From the NCBI RefSeq assembly GCF_000156375.1, contig NZ_DS996354.1, positions 1 to 64,000 on the forward strand: a stretch of DNA of 64,000 nt. The letters are read 5' to 3'. How positions within the stretch are numbered: the stretch's first letter is position 1; each line of letters starts with the position of its first letter. This DNA comes from Desulfovibrio piger ATCC 29098. Its GTDB lineage: Bacteria; Desulfobacterota; Desulfovibrionia; Desulfovibrionales; Desulfovibrionaceae. The notes under the pieces are model-generated. The model was given only the letters and a program-made list of their open reading frames with translations. It searched no databases and was not told the origin of the DNA. Positions 5,155 to 12,078 of the stretch are shown piece by piece. The position numbers and the translations under genes are program-made.

Positions 5155-5616
5155 ATGGAATGGACGCAGATTCCGGATCTTTCGGAGATCCTGTTATCGT
5201 TGGGCAAGCACCCTACCCAGGGGCCGGACATGCCTGAAGGGACGCTGCCTACGGCCCCGGGGCGGATCATCGAAGCTCTGGTGGCCTGTGCCCCCAAGGG
5301 GCTCATGGTCAAGGAACTGGCCCAGTTGCTGTACCTTTCGCCGGGCTGCATCTCCCAGACGGTGCAAGGCCTGGTCTTGGAAGGTCTCGTGGTACGGGAG
5401 CCTTCGGAAAAAGACCGGCGGGCTGTCTCCATCCGCATGACGGATAAGGGCATGGAGCGCTACCGCTACCATCACGACAAGATCAACGGCATCCTGGATC
5501 ATTTGCTGCGTGACGTGTCGGCGGAAGACAGGGCCACCTTCGAGCGGGTCCTTGCCATCGCCCTGGAGGAAGGCAAGAAATTGCGGGCAGAACAGGCGCA
5601 GGGAGCGGGCAAATGA
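5155..5616 (+). CDS. MarR-family transcriptional regulator
   Basis: A 153-residue winged-helix regulator. Residues about 45-105 hold the helix-turn-helix and wing, with the family signature EKDRRAVSIRMTDKG in the wing. Helical dimerisation segments flank it. It is the first gene of an operon with an RND efflux system; its stop overlaps the next start (ATGA). The perfect palindrome just upstream is the obvious operator. Such regulators usually lose DNA binding on meeting a toxic small molecule, which would then switch on the pump; the ligand is unknown. Confidence 0.9.
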   Translation: MEWTQIPDLSEILLSLGKHPTQGPDMPEGTLPTAPGRIIEALVACAPKGLMVKELAQLLYLSPGCISQTVQGLVLEGLVVREPSEKDRRAVSIRMTDKGMERYRYHHDKINGILDHLLRDVSAEDRATFERVLAIALEEGKKLRAEQAQGAGK

Positions 5617-6737
5617 AAAGATCCGTCCTGTTGTCCCTGCTGTTGCTCCTGTGTGCTGTTCCGCTTGTCCGGGCGGCCATGCCGGGACCGGGCATGCCGC
5701 CGCCGGCGCCTGTGGTGGAAGTGGGGGAAGTCCTTGCCGTGCAGGACACCCAGAGCCGCCGCTATACGGGCCGGGTGGTCTCGCCTGCCACGGTATCGCT
5801 GGTGCCCCGGGTGGCGGGCGAGATCCTGGAGGTGGGCTTTCGCGACGGCGACACGGTCCAGGCTGGCCAGATGCTCTACCGCATCGATCCGGTACGCTAT
5901 GAGGCCGCGGTAAAGAATGCCCGGGGCAAGGTCGTGCAGTACAAGGCGGAACACGCCTATGCCCGGGCGGATCTGGCCCGCAATCGCAGCCTGTTCAAAA
6001 AGCAGGCCGTCAGCCGTGATGTGCTGGAAAGCGCCGAGCGGACGGAGCAGGTGGCCTATGGTGAGCTGCTGGCTGCGGAGGCAGATCTTGTGACGGCCCA
6101 GGACGACTTGCGCAATACCCAGATAGTGGCGCCCATGGCCGGGCGCATCGGGGTCACGGCATTCACGGCCGGGAATTATGTGACCACGTCGTCCGGCACG
6201 CTGGTGACGCTGGTCAGGACGGATCCTGTGCGGGTACGCTTTGGTCTGAGCGTTCGCGATATGCAGGCTGTTTTCGGCTCTGAGGAAGAGCTGCGCTCGC
6301 TGGGGCGAGTGCGGGTACGCCTTGCCGACGGCACGGAATACGGGACCGAAGGCCGGGTGACCATCGTGGACAACACGGCGGAGGGCAGGACGGACACGGT
6401 CCTGGTCTATGCCGAACTGGCCAACCCCCAGAGCCGTCTTGTGCCCGAGAGCACCGTCGTGGTGACCCTGTACCGGCAGACGGACAGCGTCGTGCCTGCG
6501 GTGCCCCCGTCGGCCGTGCAGCATGACGTGCAGGGAGCGTTCGTCTATGTGGTGCAGGAGGACGACCGGGTGAGCCTGCGCCGTGTGACGCTGGGGAATC
6601 TGGTGGGCGAATCCCAGGCGGTCCGCTCGGGGTTGAACGTCCATGAGCGGGTCGTCACGGATGGCACGCACAAGGTCGTTGACGGGATGAAGGTGGACTA
6701 CGCCCGCAAGGGTACGGATGCCGGAGTGCAGGACTAG
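5613..6737 (+). CDS. RND efflux periplasmic adaptor (membrane fusion protein, HlyD/AcrA type)
   Basis: A 374-residue periplasmic adaptor joining the inner-membrane pump to the outer-membrane channel. A signal peptide (about 1-22) precedes a barrel-sandwich half RVAGEILEVGFRDGDTVQAG, a helical hairpin (about 105-165), the second lipoyl half (QIVAPMAGRIGVTAFTAGNYV) and beta-barrel and membrane-proximal domains. The length is normal. It starts inside the marR stop (ATGA overlap) and ends in TAG two bases before the permease start, so the three genes form one transcript. The gene itself is intact even though the following permease frame is interrupted. Confidence 0.93.
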   Translation: MKRSVLLSLLLLLCAVPLVRAAMPGPGMPPPAPVVEVGEVLAVQDTQSRRYTGRVVSPATVSLVPRVAGEILEVGFRDGDTVQAGQMLYRIDPVRYEAAVKNARGKVVQYKAEHAYARADLARNRSLFKKQAVSRDVLESAERTEQVAYGELLAAEADLVTAQDDLRNTQIVAPMAGRIGVTAFTAGNYVTTSSGTLVTLVRTDPVRVRFGLSVRDMQAVFGSEEELRSLGRVRVRLADGTEYGTEGRVTIVDNTAEGRTDTVLVYAELANPQSRLVPESTVVVTLYRQTDSVVPAVPPSAVQHDVQGAFVYVVQEDDRVSLRRVTLGNLVGESQAVRSGLNVHERVVTDGTHKVVDGMKVDYARKGTDAGVQD

Positions 6738-6738
6738 C

Positions 6739-9700
6739 ATGTTCTCGCGCATTTTCATCGAACGTCCCCGCCTGGCCGCTGTGGTGAGCCTGATCCTGCT
6801 GCTGGCCGGCGGCATTTCCCTGGCCAACCTGCCGGTGGCGGAATATCCCGAGATCGCGCCCCCCACGCTCTTCGTTTCGGCGACCTATTCCGGGGCCAGT
6901 GCCGACGTGGTGGCCCAGACCGTGGCCATGCCGCTGGAGAACGAGATCAACGGCGTGGAGGATCTGCTGTATTTTTCTTCCACCAGCAGCAACTCCGGCT
7001 CCTATTCCTGTTCCGTGACCTTCCGGTCCGGCACGGATTCGGACATCGCCCTCGTCAATCTGCAGAATGCCGTCAAACGGGCGGAAGCCCAGCTGCCCAG
7101 TGAAGTGACCAAGGTCGGCATCACGGTGGAGAAGCGCGGCAACGACATCCTGGCCATGCTGGCCTTCCAGACTGACGGCACCTCCCTGAGCCTGAACGAG
7201 CTGGTCAACTACGTGAACAACAACGTCAAGGATGCCCTGGCCCGTCTGGAGGGGGTCTCCTCCTCGGACATGATGTCGCAGCAGGAATACGCCATGCGCA
7301 TCTGGATGGATCCCTTGCGCATGTCCGGGCTCGGCATCTCGTCCAGCGAGATCAGGAGCGCCGTGGAGGCGCAGAACGTGCAGGCGGCCGCGGGTACGCT
7401 GGGGGCCGAAGGCAGCAACCGCTACGTTTCCTACAAGCTCAATGTGCAGGGGCGCCTCAAGACGGCGGAGGAATTCGGCGAGATCGTCGTCCGTTCCGAT
7501 GCCGACAGCGGCCGGATCGTGCGTTTGCGGGACGTGGCCACCGTGGAGCTGGGCTCCAGCAGCTATGCCGGCAGTTCCACCTTCAACGGCAAGGAAAGCG
7601 TGGGCTTGTCCCTGTACAGGAGCTCCGATGCCAATGCTCTGGCGACCATGAACCGCATCAAGGCCGAGCTGGCCACCTAGGAGCAGCGCTTCCCGCCCGG
7701 TGTGAGCTATTCCATCGCCTATGACCCGACCAAGTTCATCGTCGCGTCCATGCGGGAGATGGTGTCCACCCTGGTGGTGGCCCTGATCCTGGTCGTCCTG
7801 GTGACGTGGCTCTTCATCCAGGACTGGCGGGCCACGCTCATCCCGGCGGTGGCCATCTCCGTATCGCTGGTGGGGACCTTCAGCGTCATGTACGCTCTGG
7901 GATACAGCATCAATACCCTGACCATGTTCGGCCTGATCCTCGTCATCGGTTCCCTGGTGGACGATGCCATCGTGGTGGTGGAGAACACGCAGGGCATCAT
8001 GGAGCGCGAAGGCCTGTCCGCCCGGGAGGCGGCCATAAAAAGCATGCGGCAGATCACCGGGGCGGTCATCGCCACGACCCTGGTCACGGTGGCCTGCTAT
8101 GCGCCCCTGGCTTTTTACGGCGGCATGGTGGGGGCCATCTACCGCCAGTTCGCGGTGAGCATGTGTGTGGCTCTCTGTCTTTCCACCGTGGTGGCGCTGA
8201 CGCTCAGCCCGGCCTTGTGTGCCCTGGTCTTGCGTCGGTCGGGCGGGCAGTGCGCGCCCATCTTCCTGCCCGTCAACAGGTTCCTGGACGCCCTGCGCGG
8301 CCGCTATCTGGGCATGACGGGGCGTCTTGTCCGGCGCGGCGGGCTGACGCTGGGCATACTGGGCGGGACCTTCCTCGGCGTATGGCTCCTGTACGGGCAT
8401 ATCCCGCCGTCGTTTCTGCCCATGGAAGACAAGGGCGTCATCTTCTGCAATGTGGAATTGCCCGGCGATGCCGTCCAGGCGCGTACCGATGCGGTGCTGG
8501 CCACGGTGCGCGAGCGTCTGTCGGCCATCCCCGGCATCCATTCCGTCATGCAGGTCTCGGGCATGAGCATGCTCAGCGGCAGCGGGGAGAATGCGGCCAT
8601 GTGCATCGTGGAGCTGGATCCCTGGGAGGAGCGCACCACGCCGCCGACCCGTCTTTCGGCCATCATGGGACAGATCCAGGGCCGGACGCACGATATCGCC
8701 GCCGCCAGCATCGTGGCCTTCACACCGCCGGCCATCATGGGCCTGGGCGCCACGGGCGGGGCCTCGTTCGACATCTGCGGCATCGGAGACATCGAAGCCT
8801 CCGCGCTGGCCACCGTCACGGATTCCTTTGTCCGTGATCTGTCGGCGCGGCCCGAGACCATGTTCGCCATGACGGCCTATGATGCGGCCACGCCGCAGCT
8901 CCGTCTGCGTCTGGACCGTGAGAAGGCCGAACTGCTGGGCGTGCAGGCCGGGACCGTCTTCTCCACGCTCCAGGATGTGCTGGCATCCTATTATATCAAT
9001 GACTTCACCCTGAGCGGCAATAATTTCGAGGTCAAGCTCCAGGCCGGGGCCGACGCCCGCTCGTCGCTGCATCATGTGGAAGAATTGCTCATCCCCAACA
9101 GCAGCGGTGACATGGTGCCCCTGAGCGCCCTTGGCACGCTCCAGTATGAAGTGGGGCCGCGCCAGATCACGCGCTTCAACAAGATGATCGCGGCGGAGAT
9201 CAACGCCCAGAGCGCTCCCGGTGTCAGCTCCGGCGATCTGTACGCGGCCATCGAGGGCATCGAGCTGCCTGAAGGATACCATATCGAATAGACGGGCCTC
9301 AGCTATCAGGAAAAGCAGAACACCGGGCAGATAGTCTTCCTTATGGGGTTGGCCTTGCTGTTCGCCTATCTTTTCCTGGTGGCGCAGTACGAGAGCTGGA
9401 CGATCCCCGTACCGGTGATGCTGACCGTCAGCTTTGCCGTACTGGGGGCCCTGCTGGGGCTGACCGTCTGCGGAGAATCCATGAGCATCTATGCCCAGCT
9501 GGGCCTGGTCATGCTCATCGGTCTTGCGGCCAAGAACGCCATCCTGATGGTGGAGTTTTCCAAACAGGAGCGCGAGGGCGGCAAAGGCATCGAGGAAGCG
9601 GCCCTTTCGGGAGCCAATCTGCGTTTCCGCGCCGTGATGATGACGGCCTGGAGCTTCCTCTTCGGCGTTTTGCCTCTGGTGTTCGCGGACGGTGCGGGTG

Positions 9701-9840
9701 CCGCCAGCCGTCAGGCCATCGGCATCACCACCTTTTCGGGCATGCTGGCGGCCACATGCGTGGGCATCGTGTTCACTCCGGCCCTGTACGCCGTTTTCCA
9801 GCGCCTGCGCGAAAAGGCCACACGAAAGTTCCGCGGCGGT
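6739..9840 (+). pseudogene. RND (HAE-1/AcrB-type) efflux permease, interrupted by two in-frame TAG codons
   Basis: The frame from ATG 6739 encodes a full-size permease (about 1030 codons) with normal landmarks: N-terminal RIFIERPRLAAVVSLI, the proton-relay aspartates in GSLVDDAIVVVENTQ, and the relay lysine in GLAAKNAILMVEF. Two TAG codons break it, at 7678-7680 (codon 314, after NRIKAELAT) and 9289-9291 (codon 851, within GYHIE-stop-TGLSYQE, where homologs have Trp). No frameshift occurs and both sides remain well conserved, so the lesions look recent or are read through. TAG is the normal stop of many intact genes here, including the adaptor just upstream, so general amber decoding is unlikely. 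There is no separate stop codon at its natural C-terminus. Confidence 0.8.
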
Positions 9841-11229
9841 CGCGCGGCCCTGTGCCTGCTGCTGGCCGTTGGTCTGTCCGGCCTGGGCGGCTGTACCCTG
9901 GGGCCTGATTTCAAGCGGGCTGACGTGGACGTGCCGGAAAACTTCCTGCCCGGCACGCTTGCCGGTACGGGAGCGCCCCTGCGTCCTTCCTGGTGGGAGG
10001 ACTTCCATGATCCGTTGCTGACGGCTCTGGTGCTCGAAGCGCAGGAGGGCAGCCTTTCCGTCCGGCAGGCCGTGCAGCGGGTGGCCCAGTCGCGGGCGGC
10101 ACGCATGGAGGCCCGTGCGGAATTCCTGCCGGATGCCACGGGGGCGGGCGAGCTGGCCCGTTCCCGGAACTACGCGCCCGACGGGACAGCCACCAAGCTG
10201 GACGCTTCCGTGCAGCTGGCGCTGGCCGTGGATGTGTTCGGCGGGCTGCGGCGCAGTCTGGAAGCGGCCGGTGCCGATTTGGAGGCCGCGGGCATAAGCC
10301 TTGCCGACGCACGCGCCTCTCTGGCCGTGGAAGTGGCCACAGGCTACGTGGACCTGCGGCTGGCACAGGAAAAACTCCGCATCGCGCTGGAGAATGTGGC
10401 GGTGCAGCGGGATACGGTACGCATCATACAGGCCCGTGCCGATGCCGGTACGGTGGCCATGCTCGACCTGCACGCCGCCCGGGCCCAGATGGAGACCACA
10501 CAGGCCTCCGTGCCGTCGGCGGAAGCGGAGGTCGTGTCGGCCATCCGCGGACTGGAGGCCCTGGCCGGCCGCAATCCCGGCATGTTCGATGCCCGTCTGT
10601 CTTCTTATGGGCCCATACCGGAATTGCGCAGCCTGCCTTCGGCCGTGCCTTCCGATCTGCTGCGCCGCAGGCCGGACGTCCGCAAGGCCGAAGCCGAGCA
10701 TCATGCAGCCACGGCGCGTATCGGGGTGGCCGAGGCTTCGTTCTTCCCCAGCTTTTCCCTTGTGGGCAGCGGGGCCGTCACTTCCTCGGACTTCGTCTCC
10801 TGGAGCGAGGCCATGAAGAGCCTGGGCGCGGGGCCCATGGTGAACTGGAACATCTTTTCGTTCGGCCGCACCCAGGCCGCCGTGGACCAGGCACGGGCCG
10901 CCGCGGCAGAGGCCGCCCTCGTATACCGTCAAACGGTCCTGGAGGCCCTGCATGACGTGGAGACCTCCTGGTCGGCCCATGAAAAGGAATCACGCCGGGA
11001 GGACGGTTTGCGCGCGGCCAGGGACCACCAGAGGCAGGCCCTGCTGCTTTCCCGCGATCTGTACGCGGGGGGCAAGGGGGACTATCTGGACGTGCTGACG
11101 GCCCAGGCATCCAGCCTGAGCGCCGAAACGGAATACGCCTCGCACCGGGCGGCCATGGCCAAGGACGCTGTCGCTCTTATTAGGGCCCTTGGCGGCGGCT
11201 GGACGGGTGAAGACATGACGCGGCCCTGA
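9343..11229 (+). CDS. Open frame: C-terminal RND permease segment fused to a NodT/OprM-type outer-membrane factor lipoprotein
   Basis: After the second TAG the same frame runs 628 codons. The first 165 or so complete the permease (ending near QRLREKATRKFRGGR). Without any stop it passes into a lipoprotein signal (RAALCLLLAVGLSGLGGC, lipobox Cys codon at 9892) and a full outer-membrane factor of about 445 residues, with two repeated helical OEP segments (for example SVRQAVQRVAQSRAARMEAR and LRRRPDVRKAEAEHHAATAR). No ATG, GTG or TTG lies in frame at the junction, so the channel seems to depend on the permease's translation. Topology permits it: the permease C-terminus is cytoplasmic, and the signal could insert and be cleaved by lipoprotein signal peptidase. 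Expression is uncertain because of the upstream TAGs. Confidence 0.75.
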   Translation: MGLALLFAYLFLVAQYESWTIPVPVMLTVSFAVLGALLGLTVCGESMSIYAQLGLVMLIGLAAKNAILMVEFSKQEREGGKGIEEAALSGANLRFRAVMMTAWSFLFGVLPLVFADGAGAASRQAIGITTFSGMLAATCVGIVFTPALYAVFQRLREKATRKFRGGRAALCLLLAVGLSGLGGCTLGPDFKRADVDVPENFLPGTLAGTGAPLRPSWWEDFHDPLLTALVLEAQEGSLSVRQAVQRVAQSRAARMEARAEFLPDATGAGELARSRNYAPDGTATKLDASVQLALAVDVFGGLRRSLEAAGADLEAAGISLADARASLAVEVATGYVDLRLAQEKLRIALENVAVQRDTVRIIQARADAGTVAMLDLHAARAQMETTQASVPSAEAEVVSAIRGLEALAGRNPGMFDARLSSYGPIPELRSLPSAVPSDLLRRRPDVRKAEAEHHAATARIGVAEASFFPSFSLVGSGAVTSSDFVSWSEAMKSLGAGPMVNWNIFSFGRTQAAVDQARAAAAEAALVYRQTVLEALHDVETSWSAHEKESRREDGLRAARDHQRQALLLSRDLYAGGKGDYLDVLTAQASSLSAETEYASHRAAMAKDAVALIRALGGGWTGEDMTRP

Positions 11230-11235
11230 TGGAAG

Positions 11236-11268
11236 AAGAGCCCTGCCGGAGACCGGCAGGGCTCTTTT
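11236..11268. terminator. Terminator between the efflux operon and the minus-strand lipoprotein gene
   Basis: A 13-bp perfect stem, AAGAGCCCTGCCG with its complement and a 5-base loop, ends in TTTT. It lies 7 bases after the efflux stop and 23 bases from the end of the convergent gene, so it may serve both strands. Confidence 0.85.
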
Positions 11269-11290
11269 ATGGCGATGGATCGGCTCCATG

Positions 11291-11971
11291 TCAGTTGGCC
11301 GTGACTTCCTTTTCTTCCACCACAGGTGGTTCATCCTCGTCCAGCGTCACGACGAAATAGCGCCGTCCGCTGGTATCCTTGCCCAGATGTTGCTGTAAAA
11401 CGGGCAGCATGGCCTGCAGCAGGGTGCGAAAATCATCATCCTGTGCCGTACAGCGGATCTCTGTCCGCCAGAGGTTCTTGCCGCGGCCGCCGTCCGGCGC
11501 CCGTGTGCAGCCTTCCAGCAGCAGCCCGGCATGGAAAAAGACCTTGGTCCGGGTGTCTTCCTCGCGTACCCAGCGGGTATGGCGAAAATGCCCCCGGCCC
11601 CAGGTGTAGGGCACATAGCTGACCGTGGTGTAGATGCGCACGTCGGGCTCGCTGATGCCGAAGCTGATGAAGACCAGGTTATCGCCCTTGTCCTGCGTCT
11701 GTTCGTCCAGTTTCAGGGTGTAGCCCCGGGCCGTGAAGCAAGGTTCCAGTTGTGCGGCCACATCCCGGAACAGCAGATCGTCCTCGGCCATGCCTTCCAC
11801 GCCGGGGCGGGGCACATAGACGGTGCCCGCGCTGTCGGCCTGGGGGCCGCGCAGGGAATCCACGCTCACACCGTACTGGGGGGCGCAGGCGCCCAGCCAG
11901 GGCAGGAGCAGCAGGCAGCACAGGATCAGGCAGCGAGGACTGCCGATATGACGGAAGCGGGGACGGATCAT
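11291..11971 (-). CDS. Putative outer-membrane or periplasmic lipoprotein, DUF4136-like
   Basis: About 226 residues from ATG 11971. A basic start (MIRPRFRHIG) and hydrophobic stretch lead to the lipobox LGAC, so the mature protein starts at the Cys of CAPQYG and should be lipid-anchored. The body alternates predicted strands (VFISFGISEPDVRIYTTVSYVP) and resembles the loosely defined DUF4136 lipoproteins. A short acidic tail (LDEDEPPVVEEKE) ends it. An in-frame ATG at 12025 is further out but would spoil the signal peptide. Function unknown; it follows the Pst genes on the same strand, with a gap. Confidence 0.7.
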   Translation of the reverse strand: MIRPRFRHIGSPRCLILCCLLLLPWLGACAPQYGVSVDSLRGPQADSAGTVYVPRPGVEGMAEDDLLFRDVAAQLEPCFTARGYTLKLDEQTQDKGDNLVFISFGISEPDVRIYTTVSYVPYTWGRGHFRHTRWVREEDTRTKVFFHAGLLLEGCTRAPDGGRGKNLWRTEIRCTAQDDDFRTLLQAMLPVLQQHLGKDTSGRRYFVVTLDEDEPPVVEEKEVTAN

Positions 11972-12078
11972 GCGATACCCCATTGGGATGCCGAGGCTCA
12001 GGAACTGCCCGCCTGTACTAGGCAAGACCGGCAGGCAGCCCCCTTCTGTTCCCGGACGCTTTGTCTGTTGGGGCCTGT

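What the first reader, a model, noticed from the sequence alone, without database searches (positions are those of the whole stretch)
9800..11229. Permease runs without a stop into the outer-membrane factor: a pump-channel fusion
There is no stop and no in-frame ATG/GTG/TTG between the RND C-terminus and the OMF lipoprotein signal. As the RND C-terminus is cytoplasmic, the lipobox segment could act as a thirteenth helix cleaved by signal peptidase II, giving pump and channel in fixed ratio from one polypeptide. Fusions of CusA-type pumps to TolC domains are known in Bacteroidetes; an HAE-1 type fused through a lipoprotein signal is, to my knowledge, not standard.
Basis: partly seen in the sequence, partly recalled or inferred. 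Interest (0 to 1): 0.72.

Follow-up and report, generated by a model that had tools for sequence, protein, structure and literature searches.

The report
Efflux pump fused to lipoprotein channel
A drug-efflux pump gene runs straight into its outer-membrane channel gene through a built-in lipoprotein cleavage signal, an arrangement that has arisen several times in bacteria and probably makes two proteins from one chain, although the copy in this genome is broken by two stop codons.

Summary
The junction is as described: no stop and no ATG/GTG/TTG between the RND permease and the lipoprotein OMF, lipobox Cys codon at 9892. The fusion is older than the damage: two sister genomes (one matches Desulfovibrio piger PG-251-APC-1) have the same junction in one intact frame, under purifying selection (omega 0.06-0.10). 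The permease nests among unfused Lentisphaerota/Victivallaceae-type permeases, so it was probably acquired. Searches of samples of three phyla gave 49 more RND-OMF fusions, 38 full length in one frame. All 52 junctions have a Cys with Gly/Ala/Ser before it behind a hydrophobic stretch; 45 of 52 fit a standard lipoprotein pattern. Fusion arose repeatedly (one clade rejected, p-AU 0.0002). Best reading: a pump-channel polyprotein whose OMF lipoprotein signal follows TM12 and is cut by signal peptidase II, giving permease and channel 1:1. Cleavage itself is inferred. I saw no earlier report in the open papers searched. New variant of a known kind.

The parts
5155..5616 (+). MarR-type regulator, first gene of the operon
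   Evidence: Pfam MarR_2 4.9e-9; 98-99% identical and in the same order in both sisters
5613..6737 (+). Periplasmic adaptor (MFP) of the pump; ends in TAG
   Evidence: TIGR01730 217.5 bits over cut-off 94.9; the same TAG stop in all three genomes
6739..9801 (+). HAE-1 type RND permease part of the fused frame (ATG 6739 to the end of TM12)
   Evidence: ACR_tran 1-1020 of 1021, 987 bits with 2 TAG; the intact copy of sister L047 scores TIGR00915 1053 bits over cut-off 940
7678..7680 (+). In-frame TAG stop in the permease
   Evidence: a sense codon in both sisters; the residue there is the same in 10 of 10 related permeases
9289..9291 (+). Second in-frame TAG stop in the permease
   Evidence: a sense codon in both sisters; the residue there is the same in 10 of 10 related permeases
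9802..9846 (+). Cytoplasmic linker and n-region of the internal lipoprotein signal, RLREKATRKFRGGRA (7 K/R, 1 E)
9847..9891 (+). Hydrophobic h-region ALCLLLAVGLSGLGG, mean Kyte-Doolittle 2.05, no ATG/GTG/TTG; proposed cleaved helix 13
   Evidence: helix 167-182 in a low-confidence model
9892..11226 (+). OMF of the NodT/OprN lipoprotein type, 445 aa from the lipobox Cys
   Evidence: TIGR01845 316.4 bits over cut-off 210.05; OprN 5iuy 3.5e-51, aligned Cys1 to Cys1
11227..11229 (+). TGA stop of the fused frame
11238..11269 (+). Terminator-like hairpin with T tail after the fused frame
   Evidence: read in the sequence; the consensus scan did not list it

Best explanation
In the intact relatives this is a pump-channel polyprotein. 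One chain carries a 12-helix HAE-1 RND permease (C-terminus in the cytoplasm), a short basic linker, a hydrophobic lipoprotein signal and a NodT/OprN-type channel. The signal inserts as a thirteenth helix with its lipobox at the periplasmic face; Lgt lipidates the Cys and signal peptidase II (LspA) cuts before it. The permease stays in the inner membrane with a short extra tail and the channel is sorted to the outer membrane as an ordinary lipoprotein. This gives permease and channel in a 1:1 ratio, as two trimers need, while the hexameric adaptor is translated separately. Shown: the one-frame architecture, its conservation, its lipobox-like junction and its recurrence. Inferred: insertion, lipidation, cleavage and use of the ratio. 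In the window's own genome two stops in the permease have probably inactivated the gene recently.
For: Same junction in two sister genomes in an uninterrupted 1512-codon frame. Omega 0.058-0.102 for G000 against the sisters over permease and OMF parts, dS 0.19-0.30. 31 of 288 genomes of a PVC class carry the join in one frame; 7 more in 387 genomes of that phylum, 5 more in 395 of the window's phylum, 6 in 392 of the phylum of a genome titled Planctomycetota. 52 of 52 fused junctions have Gly/Ala/Ser-Cys behind a hydrophobic stretch; 45 of 52 fit a PROSITE-type lipoprotein pattern (recalled). In the 34 scored the linker has more K/R than D/E in 34, is 29-33 aa long in 29, and the 15 residues before Cys average 1.3-2.5 Kyte-Doolittle. 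5 of those 34, this window included, have no ATG/GTG/TTG between TM12 and residue -7, so a second initiation there cannot be the general solution. The OMF begins at the Cys that is residue 1 of OprN in the solved structures, with no extra linker, so an uncut chain could hardly span from the inner membrane to the outer. Fusion is polyphyletic on permease trees.
Against: No protein evidence: insertion, lipidation and cleavage are all inferred, and no lipoprotein predictor was run. The search profiles contain lipobox-bearing sequences and NodT-type OMFs are generally lipoproteins, so 52 of 52 is partly ascertainment. Only 11 of 52 fit the strict pattern [LVI][ASTVI][GAS]C, and 7 of 52 fail the PROSITE-type one; the window's own LGGC fails the strict pattern. 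11 of the 49 outside fusions are not full length in one frame: 9 start at a contig edge, 2 (L184, L257) have the rest of the permease elsewhere. The operon looks weakly kept in this group: the window's permease has two stops and the adaptor of sister G051 has a one-base frameshift; only G071 has adaptor and fusion both intact. 29 of 34 junctions contain some start codon (in the sisters one GTG at -8), so reinitiation is not excluded there. Most relatives are unnamed or draft genomes. The structure model is too weak to inform.
Confidence: 0.73

Rival explanations
1. The open junction is an accident of decay: the permease lost its stop codon in a dying gene and nothing functional reads through it.
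For: This copy does carry two in-frame stops in the permease and the adaptor is frameshifted in one sister.
Against: Both sisters have the same junction in an intact frame, omega is about 0.06-0.10, and the architecture recurs in 49 further genomes.
Confidence: 0.06
2. The OMF is made separately by internal initiation or translational reinitiation, and the lack of a stop is incidental.
For: 29 of 34 junctions contain at least one ATG/GTG/TTG between TM12 and residue -7.
Against: 5 of 34 have none, including this window, and the two sisters have only one at -8, too short for a signal; losing the stop would then bring no benefit, yet deeply diverged clades stay fused.
Confidence: 0.13
3. The chain is never cut and works as a covalent trans-envelope pump-channel.
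For: Fused in one frame; no direct evidence of cleavage; 7 of 52 junctions miss the PROSITE-type lipoprotein pattern.
Against: The OMF starts at OprN Cys1 without a spacer, and in OprN-type channels that Cys lies at the outer membrane (recalled), so a linker of about 30 residues cannot bridge the periplasm; a Cys with Gly/Ala/Ser before it is kept in 52 of 52.
Confidence: 0.05
4. The two TAG codons are read as sense in this genome, so the full-length fusion is made here too.
For: Both interruptions are TAG, both at the same kind of residue, and there is no indel in 4.5 kb.
Against: No pyrrolysyl-tRNA synthetase over cut-off; the 9 places matching a CUA-anticodon pattern are other tRNAs, though the pattern could miss an unusual tRNA; the adaptor in the same operon ends in TAG in all three genomes; 9 of 35 long frames in the window end in TAG, though some of those 35 are not genes.
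Confidence: 0.03

Closest known systems
HAE-1 RND tripartite pumps (AcrAB-TolC, MexEF-OprN, CmeABC)
   Same: Permease, adaptor and OMF families are all present in one operon
   Different: Permease and OMF are one frame instead of two genes. In plasmid records, 12 of the 30 rows listed (of at least 5000 matching records) name permease and OMF as two features; the other 18 name no gene or only a resistance-gene prediction, so they do not tell
CusA/CzcA-type pump fused to a TolC domain in Bacteroidetes
   Same: Pump-channel fusion in one chain
   Different: Here the permease passes the HAE-1 model (1053 bits over 940) and not the CusA/CzcA model (320 bits under 701), and the join is a lipoprotein signal
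FbcH cytochrome b/c1 polyprotein of Bradyrhizobium (recalled; the listings showed no open paper on it)
   Same: A polytopic inner-membrane protein and a following secreted subunit made as one chain and separated at the second protein's signal (recalled)
   Different: Signal peptidase I there (recalled), a lipobox for signal peptidase II here; both products there serve one inner-membrane complex, here one product goes to the outer membrane

Membership tests
HAE-1 RND permease (TIGR00915) | Whole-protein score over the curated cut-off | tested here: met
   Intact sister copy 1053.4 bits, cut-off 940.35; the window copy in pieces: ACR_tran matches on all three
HAE-1 RND permease (TIGR00915) | Proton-relay residues in TM4 (DD), TM10 (K), TM11 (R) (recalled) | tested here: met
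   SLVDDAIVVVEN, AAKNAILMVEF and RFRAVMMTA are present in the translation; assignment to the relay is recalled
HAE-1 RND permease (TIGR00915) | Uninterrupted reading frame | tested here: not met
   Two in-frame TAG in the window copy; met in G051 and G071
NodT/OprN-type OMF lipoprotein (TIGR01845) | Score over cut-off and near full-length match | tested here: met
   316.4 bits against 210.05, profile 7-460 of 460
NodT/OprN-type OMF lipoprotein (TIGR01845) | Lipobox with Cys as residue 1 of the mature protein | tested here: met
   Cys 9892 aligned with Cys1 of OprN 5iuy and 5azo; LGGC fits the PROSITE-type pattern but not the strict [LVI][ASTVI][GAS]C
NodT/OprN-type OMF lipoprotein (TIGR01845) | Own start codon and N-terminal signal peptide | tested here: not met
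   No ATG/GTG/TTG in the 30 codons between TM12 and the Cys in this copy
Periplasmic adaptor (TIGR01730) | Score over cut-off | tested here: met
   217.5 bits against 94.9
Polyprotein matured by a signal peptidase | Cleavage at the internal signal | not testable with these tools
   Needs protein data; a lipobox-like Cys is present in 52 of 52 fused junctions
CusA/CzcA fusion (TIGR00914) | Permease over the CusA/CzcA cut-off | tested here: not met
   320 bits against 701.45

The most novel reading that the evidence does not exclude
Signal peptidase II serves as a general polyprotein-processing enzyme: in at least three phyla, RND pumps have repeatedly and independently been fused to their lipoprotein outer-membrane channels, each fusion keeping the channel's lipoprotein signal as a built-in cleavage site that yields permease and channel in fixed ratio.
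Probability: 0.6. Interest if true: 0.74.

Novelty: new variant of a known kind. Interest (0 to 1): 0.6.

Why it matters
If right, lipoprotein maturation can separate a polytopic pump from an outer-membrane channel made as one chain, so inhibitors of signal peptidase II would disable such pumps directly. It also suggests a simple evolutionary rule: losing the stop between a polytopic protein with a cytoplasmic C-terminus and a following lipoprotein gene is survivable, because the lipobox restores two proteins. The recurrent fusions in the three phyla sampled make this testable in cultured members.

Tried and rejected
Pyrrolysine or suppressor reading of TAG: no synthetase over cut-off and no CUA-anticodon tRNA found by pattern (one search used a wrong spacing and was repeated).

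Slips that were redone: OMF search in a wrong frame (redone); junction print on the wrong RND repeat (redone in 61); a motif scan that missed 12 loci (redone by alignment in 41).

Long open frames around OMF matches in the third phylum were suspected to be further fusions; 9 of 15 fetched regions (L261-L269) have no RND in the frame and were dropped. One more suspect in the PVC class (G597, 1226-codon frame) also shows an OMF but no RND match in the region fetched. They act as a control on frame length alone.

AlphaFold2 on the 628-aa piece: mean pLDDT 61.7, junction residues 132-214 under 50; a separate helix at 167-182 before Cys184, not used as evidence. No fold search was run. Origin of the OMF part left open: best 38% to a Lentisphaeraceae OMF, about 33-38% to the other top 24 rows listed, 30-33% to the six best of its own genus. 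Tandem repeats: none. The promoter and terminator scan was not clearly above shuffles.

Literature: ten searches, listings seen. Aimed at pump-channel fusions: 15 of 58 listed; 15 of 32 listed; at lipobox polyproteins: 49; at FbcH: 23, 37, 77 (10 of 1804 listed); at D. piger efflux: 75. No report of an RND-OMF fusion through a lipoprotein signal seen. Passages read only in PMC8277102 and PMC4827864.

Full report
WHAT IS THERE. The window is G000:C43:1-64000 of a 2.87-Mb genome. The operon reads MarR regulator (5155-5616), adaptor (5613-6737), then one frame from ATG 6739 to TGA 11227-11229 holding an RND permease and a complete OMF. The adaptor's TAG stop is followed one base later by the permease ATG. 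Between the end of TM12 and the OMF there is no stop and no ATG/GTG/TTG; the join is RLREKATRKFRGGRA-ALCLLLAVGLSGLGG-C(9892)TLGPDF.

WHAT WAS MISSED. The permease itself has two in-frame TAG codons, at 7678-7680 and 9289-9291. In both sister genomes these positions are sense codons for a residue that is the same in 10 of 10 related permeases. Reading TAG as sense is unlikely: no pyrrolysyl-tRNA synthetase over cut-off, 9 of 9 pattern hits for a CUA anticodon are other tRNAs, and the adaptor in the same operon ends in TAG in all three genomes. This copy is therefore probably dead. The damage looks recent: no indel in 4512 nt, and permease changes that can be polarised against 10 related permeases are not enriched in G000 (4 against 9 in the sisters' stem, 7 undecided; at sites invariant in the 10, G000 deviates at 2 and the sisters at 1).

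THE FUSION IS OLDER THAN THE DAMAGE. Of 79 genomes of the genus, G000, G051 and G071 have the fusion (a fourth match, G068, has a stop between permease and OMF). G051 and G071 have a stop-free frame of 1512 codons. G051's contig has the same length and match as a contig of Desulfovibrio piger PG-251-APC-1 in the named collection. Between G000 and the sisters dS is 0.19-0.30 and omega 0.058-0.102 in both the permease and the OMF part. Against this, the adaptor of G051 has a one-base insertion, so only G071 has adaptor and fusion both intact.

WHERE IT CAME FROM. The sister's permease is 64-69% identical to its ten closest outside permeases, all Victivallaceae/Lentisphaeria-type or untitled bacteria, and 39% to the closest of the four other RND permeases of the window's genome. 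On a tree of 103 permeases the three D. piger-group rows sit in a starred set of 25 rows whose other 22 are loci, none fused; a 29-row IQ-TREE agrees. Transfer from a Lentisphaerota-like source is the natural reading; direction is inferred, and the sample was chosen by similarity. The 11 closest of those have no OMF match next to them by a profile of fused OMFs, so the channel was probably joined from elsewhere; its origin is open.

THE ARCHITECTURE RECURS. Of the 79 loci, the D. piger one (L047) and L097, a Kiritimatiellae MAG, are fused; 76 have the permease ending 6-28 codons after the matched region and one has an OMF match only. With a profile of these, 297 genomes of the window's class gave only the same three fusions and 6 genomes with a stop between permease and OMF (strict threshold, so diverged fusions could be missed). 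In the class of L097's genome, 48 of 288 genomes matched at 1e-100; I fetched 42 of the 48 (and L097): 31 are fused, 10 are separate neighbours and 1 shows an OMF without RND. The 6 not fetched are five OMF-only matches and one contig edge. For L097 and L173-L175 the OMF part was recognised by the profile span, not by BLAST. A wider profile found 7 further stop-free fusions in 387 genomes of that phylum, 5 further in 395 genomes of the window's phylum (the match list was cut) and 6 in 392 genomes of the phylum of a genome titled Planctomycetota. Nine other long frames there proved not to contain an RND.

COMPLETENESS. Of these 49 outside fusions 38 hold permease and OMF full length in one frame: 22 of 31, 11 of 12 and 5 of 6. 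Nine begin at a contig edge (L097, L180, L186, L192, L197-L199, L208, L234) and two (L184, L257) have only the C-terminal part of the permease in the frame. The L234 genome is listed with 8% contamination. L241-L244 score 453-469 bits with my permease profile against 1055-1221 for the other full-length members of that set, and L255, L258 and L259 are low as well; these may be another RND subtype and were not typed.

THE JUNCTION. All 52 fused junctions (3+31+7+5+6) have a Cys preceded by Gly, Ala or Ser behind a hydrophobic stretch. 45 of 52 fit a PROSITE-type lipoprotein pattern and 11 of 52 the strict [LVI][ASTVI][GAS]C (patterns recalled); failures of the first are Asn, His or Tyr near the Cys, or further Cys residues. 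K/R outnumber D/E in the linker in 34 of 34 scored. Cys184 and Gly183 are invariant in the 18-row alignment A2. The bias: the search profiles contain the lipobox. What bias does not explain is that the signal stays in clades that have been fused long enough for permeases to diverge deeply, and that five of 34 junctions have no alternative start codon.

INDEPENDENT ORIGINS. Fusion needs five changes of state on the 103-row tree. Holding all nine fused rows of the 29-row set together is rejected (p-AU 0.00024), and so is holding D. piger with the L173/L175 clade (p-AU 0.00007; this second grouping was chosen after seeing the first tree).

MECHANISM. RND permeases have 12 helices with both ends in the cytoplasm (established). 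A following positively charged, hydrophobic segment would insert with its far end in the periplasm, where the lipobox is the normal substrate of Lgt and LspA. The OMF then starts exactly at OprN's Cys1, and residue +2 is Thr, not the Asp that would retain it in the inner membrane (recalled rule). Permease and OMF are both trimers and the adaptor a hexamer (established), so the two 3-fold parts are the ones fused and the 6-fold part stays separate. No step of processing has been shown.

PRIOR KNOWLEDGE. Eleven passages of a 2021 review of tripartite systems mention no RND-OMF fusion (PMC8277102, first 300,000 characters held). [quoted passage not shown] Ten searches of open papers showed nothing closer in their listings (only five of them aimed at pump-channel fusions); most subscription papers are not held. 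CusA-TolC fusions in Bacteroidetes and the FbcH polyprotein are recalled, not checked.

VERDICT. In this window: a probably inactivated copy. In its lineage and beyond: a real, recurrent pump-channel fusion joined by a lipoprotein signal, best explained as a polyprotein cut by signal peptidase II. On checking, the strict-pattern count led me to lower the confidence from 0.74 to 0.73 and to raise the uncut rival from 0.04 to 0.05.

Noticed in passing
L039 about 11954-11967 (G051), counterpart of window 5613-6737: The adaptor gene of sister G051 carries a one-base insertion that shifts its frame; real or a draft error.
   Followed up: partly
window 6655-10980, minus strand: A 1441-aa open frame runs antisense through nearly the whole fused gene; most likely a by-product of GC-rich codon use.
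   Followed up: no
   Followed up: no
L177-L179, L205, L207, L209-L211: Relatives of fused genes in which permease and OMF are separate neighbours in the same frame, the OMF frame opening right after the permease stop (8 of the 9 separate pairs measured; the search favours in-phase neighbours), the likely starting state for fusion.
   Followed up: partly
L048-L125: The permeases nearest to the D. piger-group one mostly have no OMF match beside them in the stretch fetched, so their channel is probably encoded elsewhere or too diverged for the profile.
   Followed up: no
window 11291-12025, minus strand: The convergent neighbour encodes a protein with an ordinary N-terminal lipobox (LGAC by eye), kept in both sisters.
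   Followed up: no
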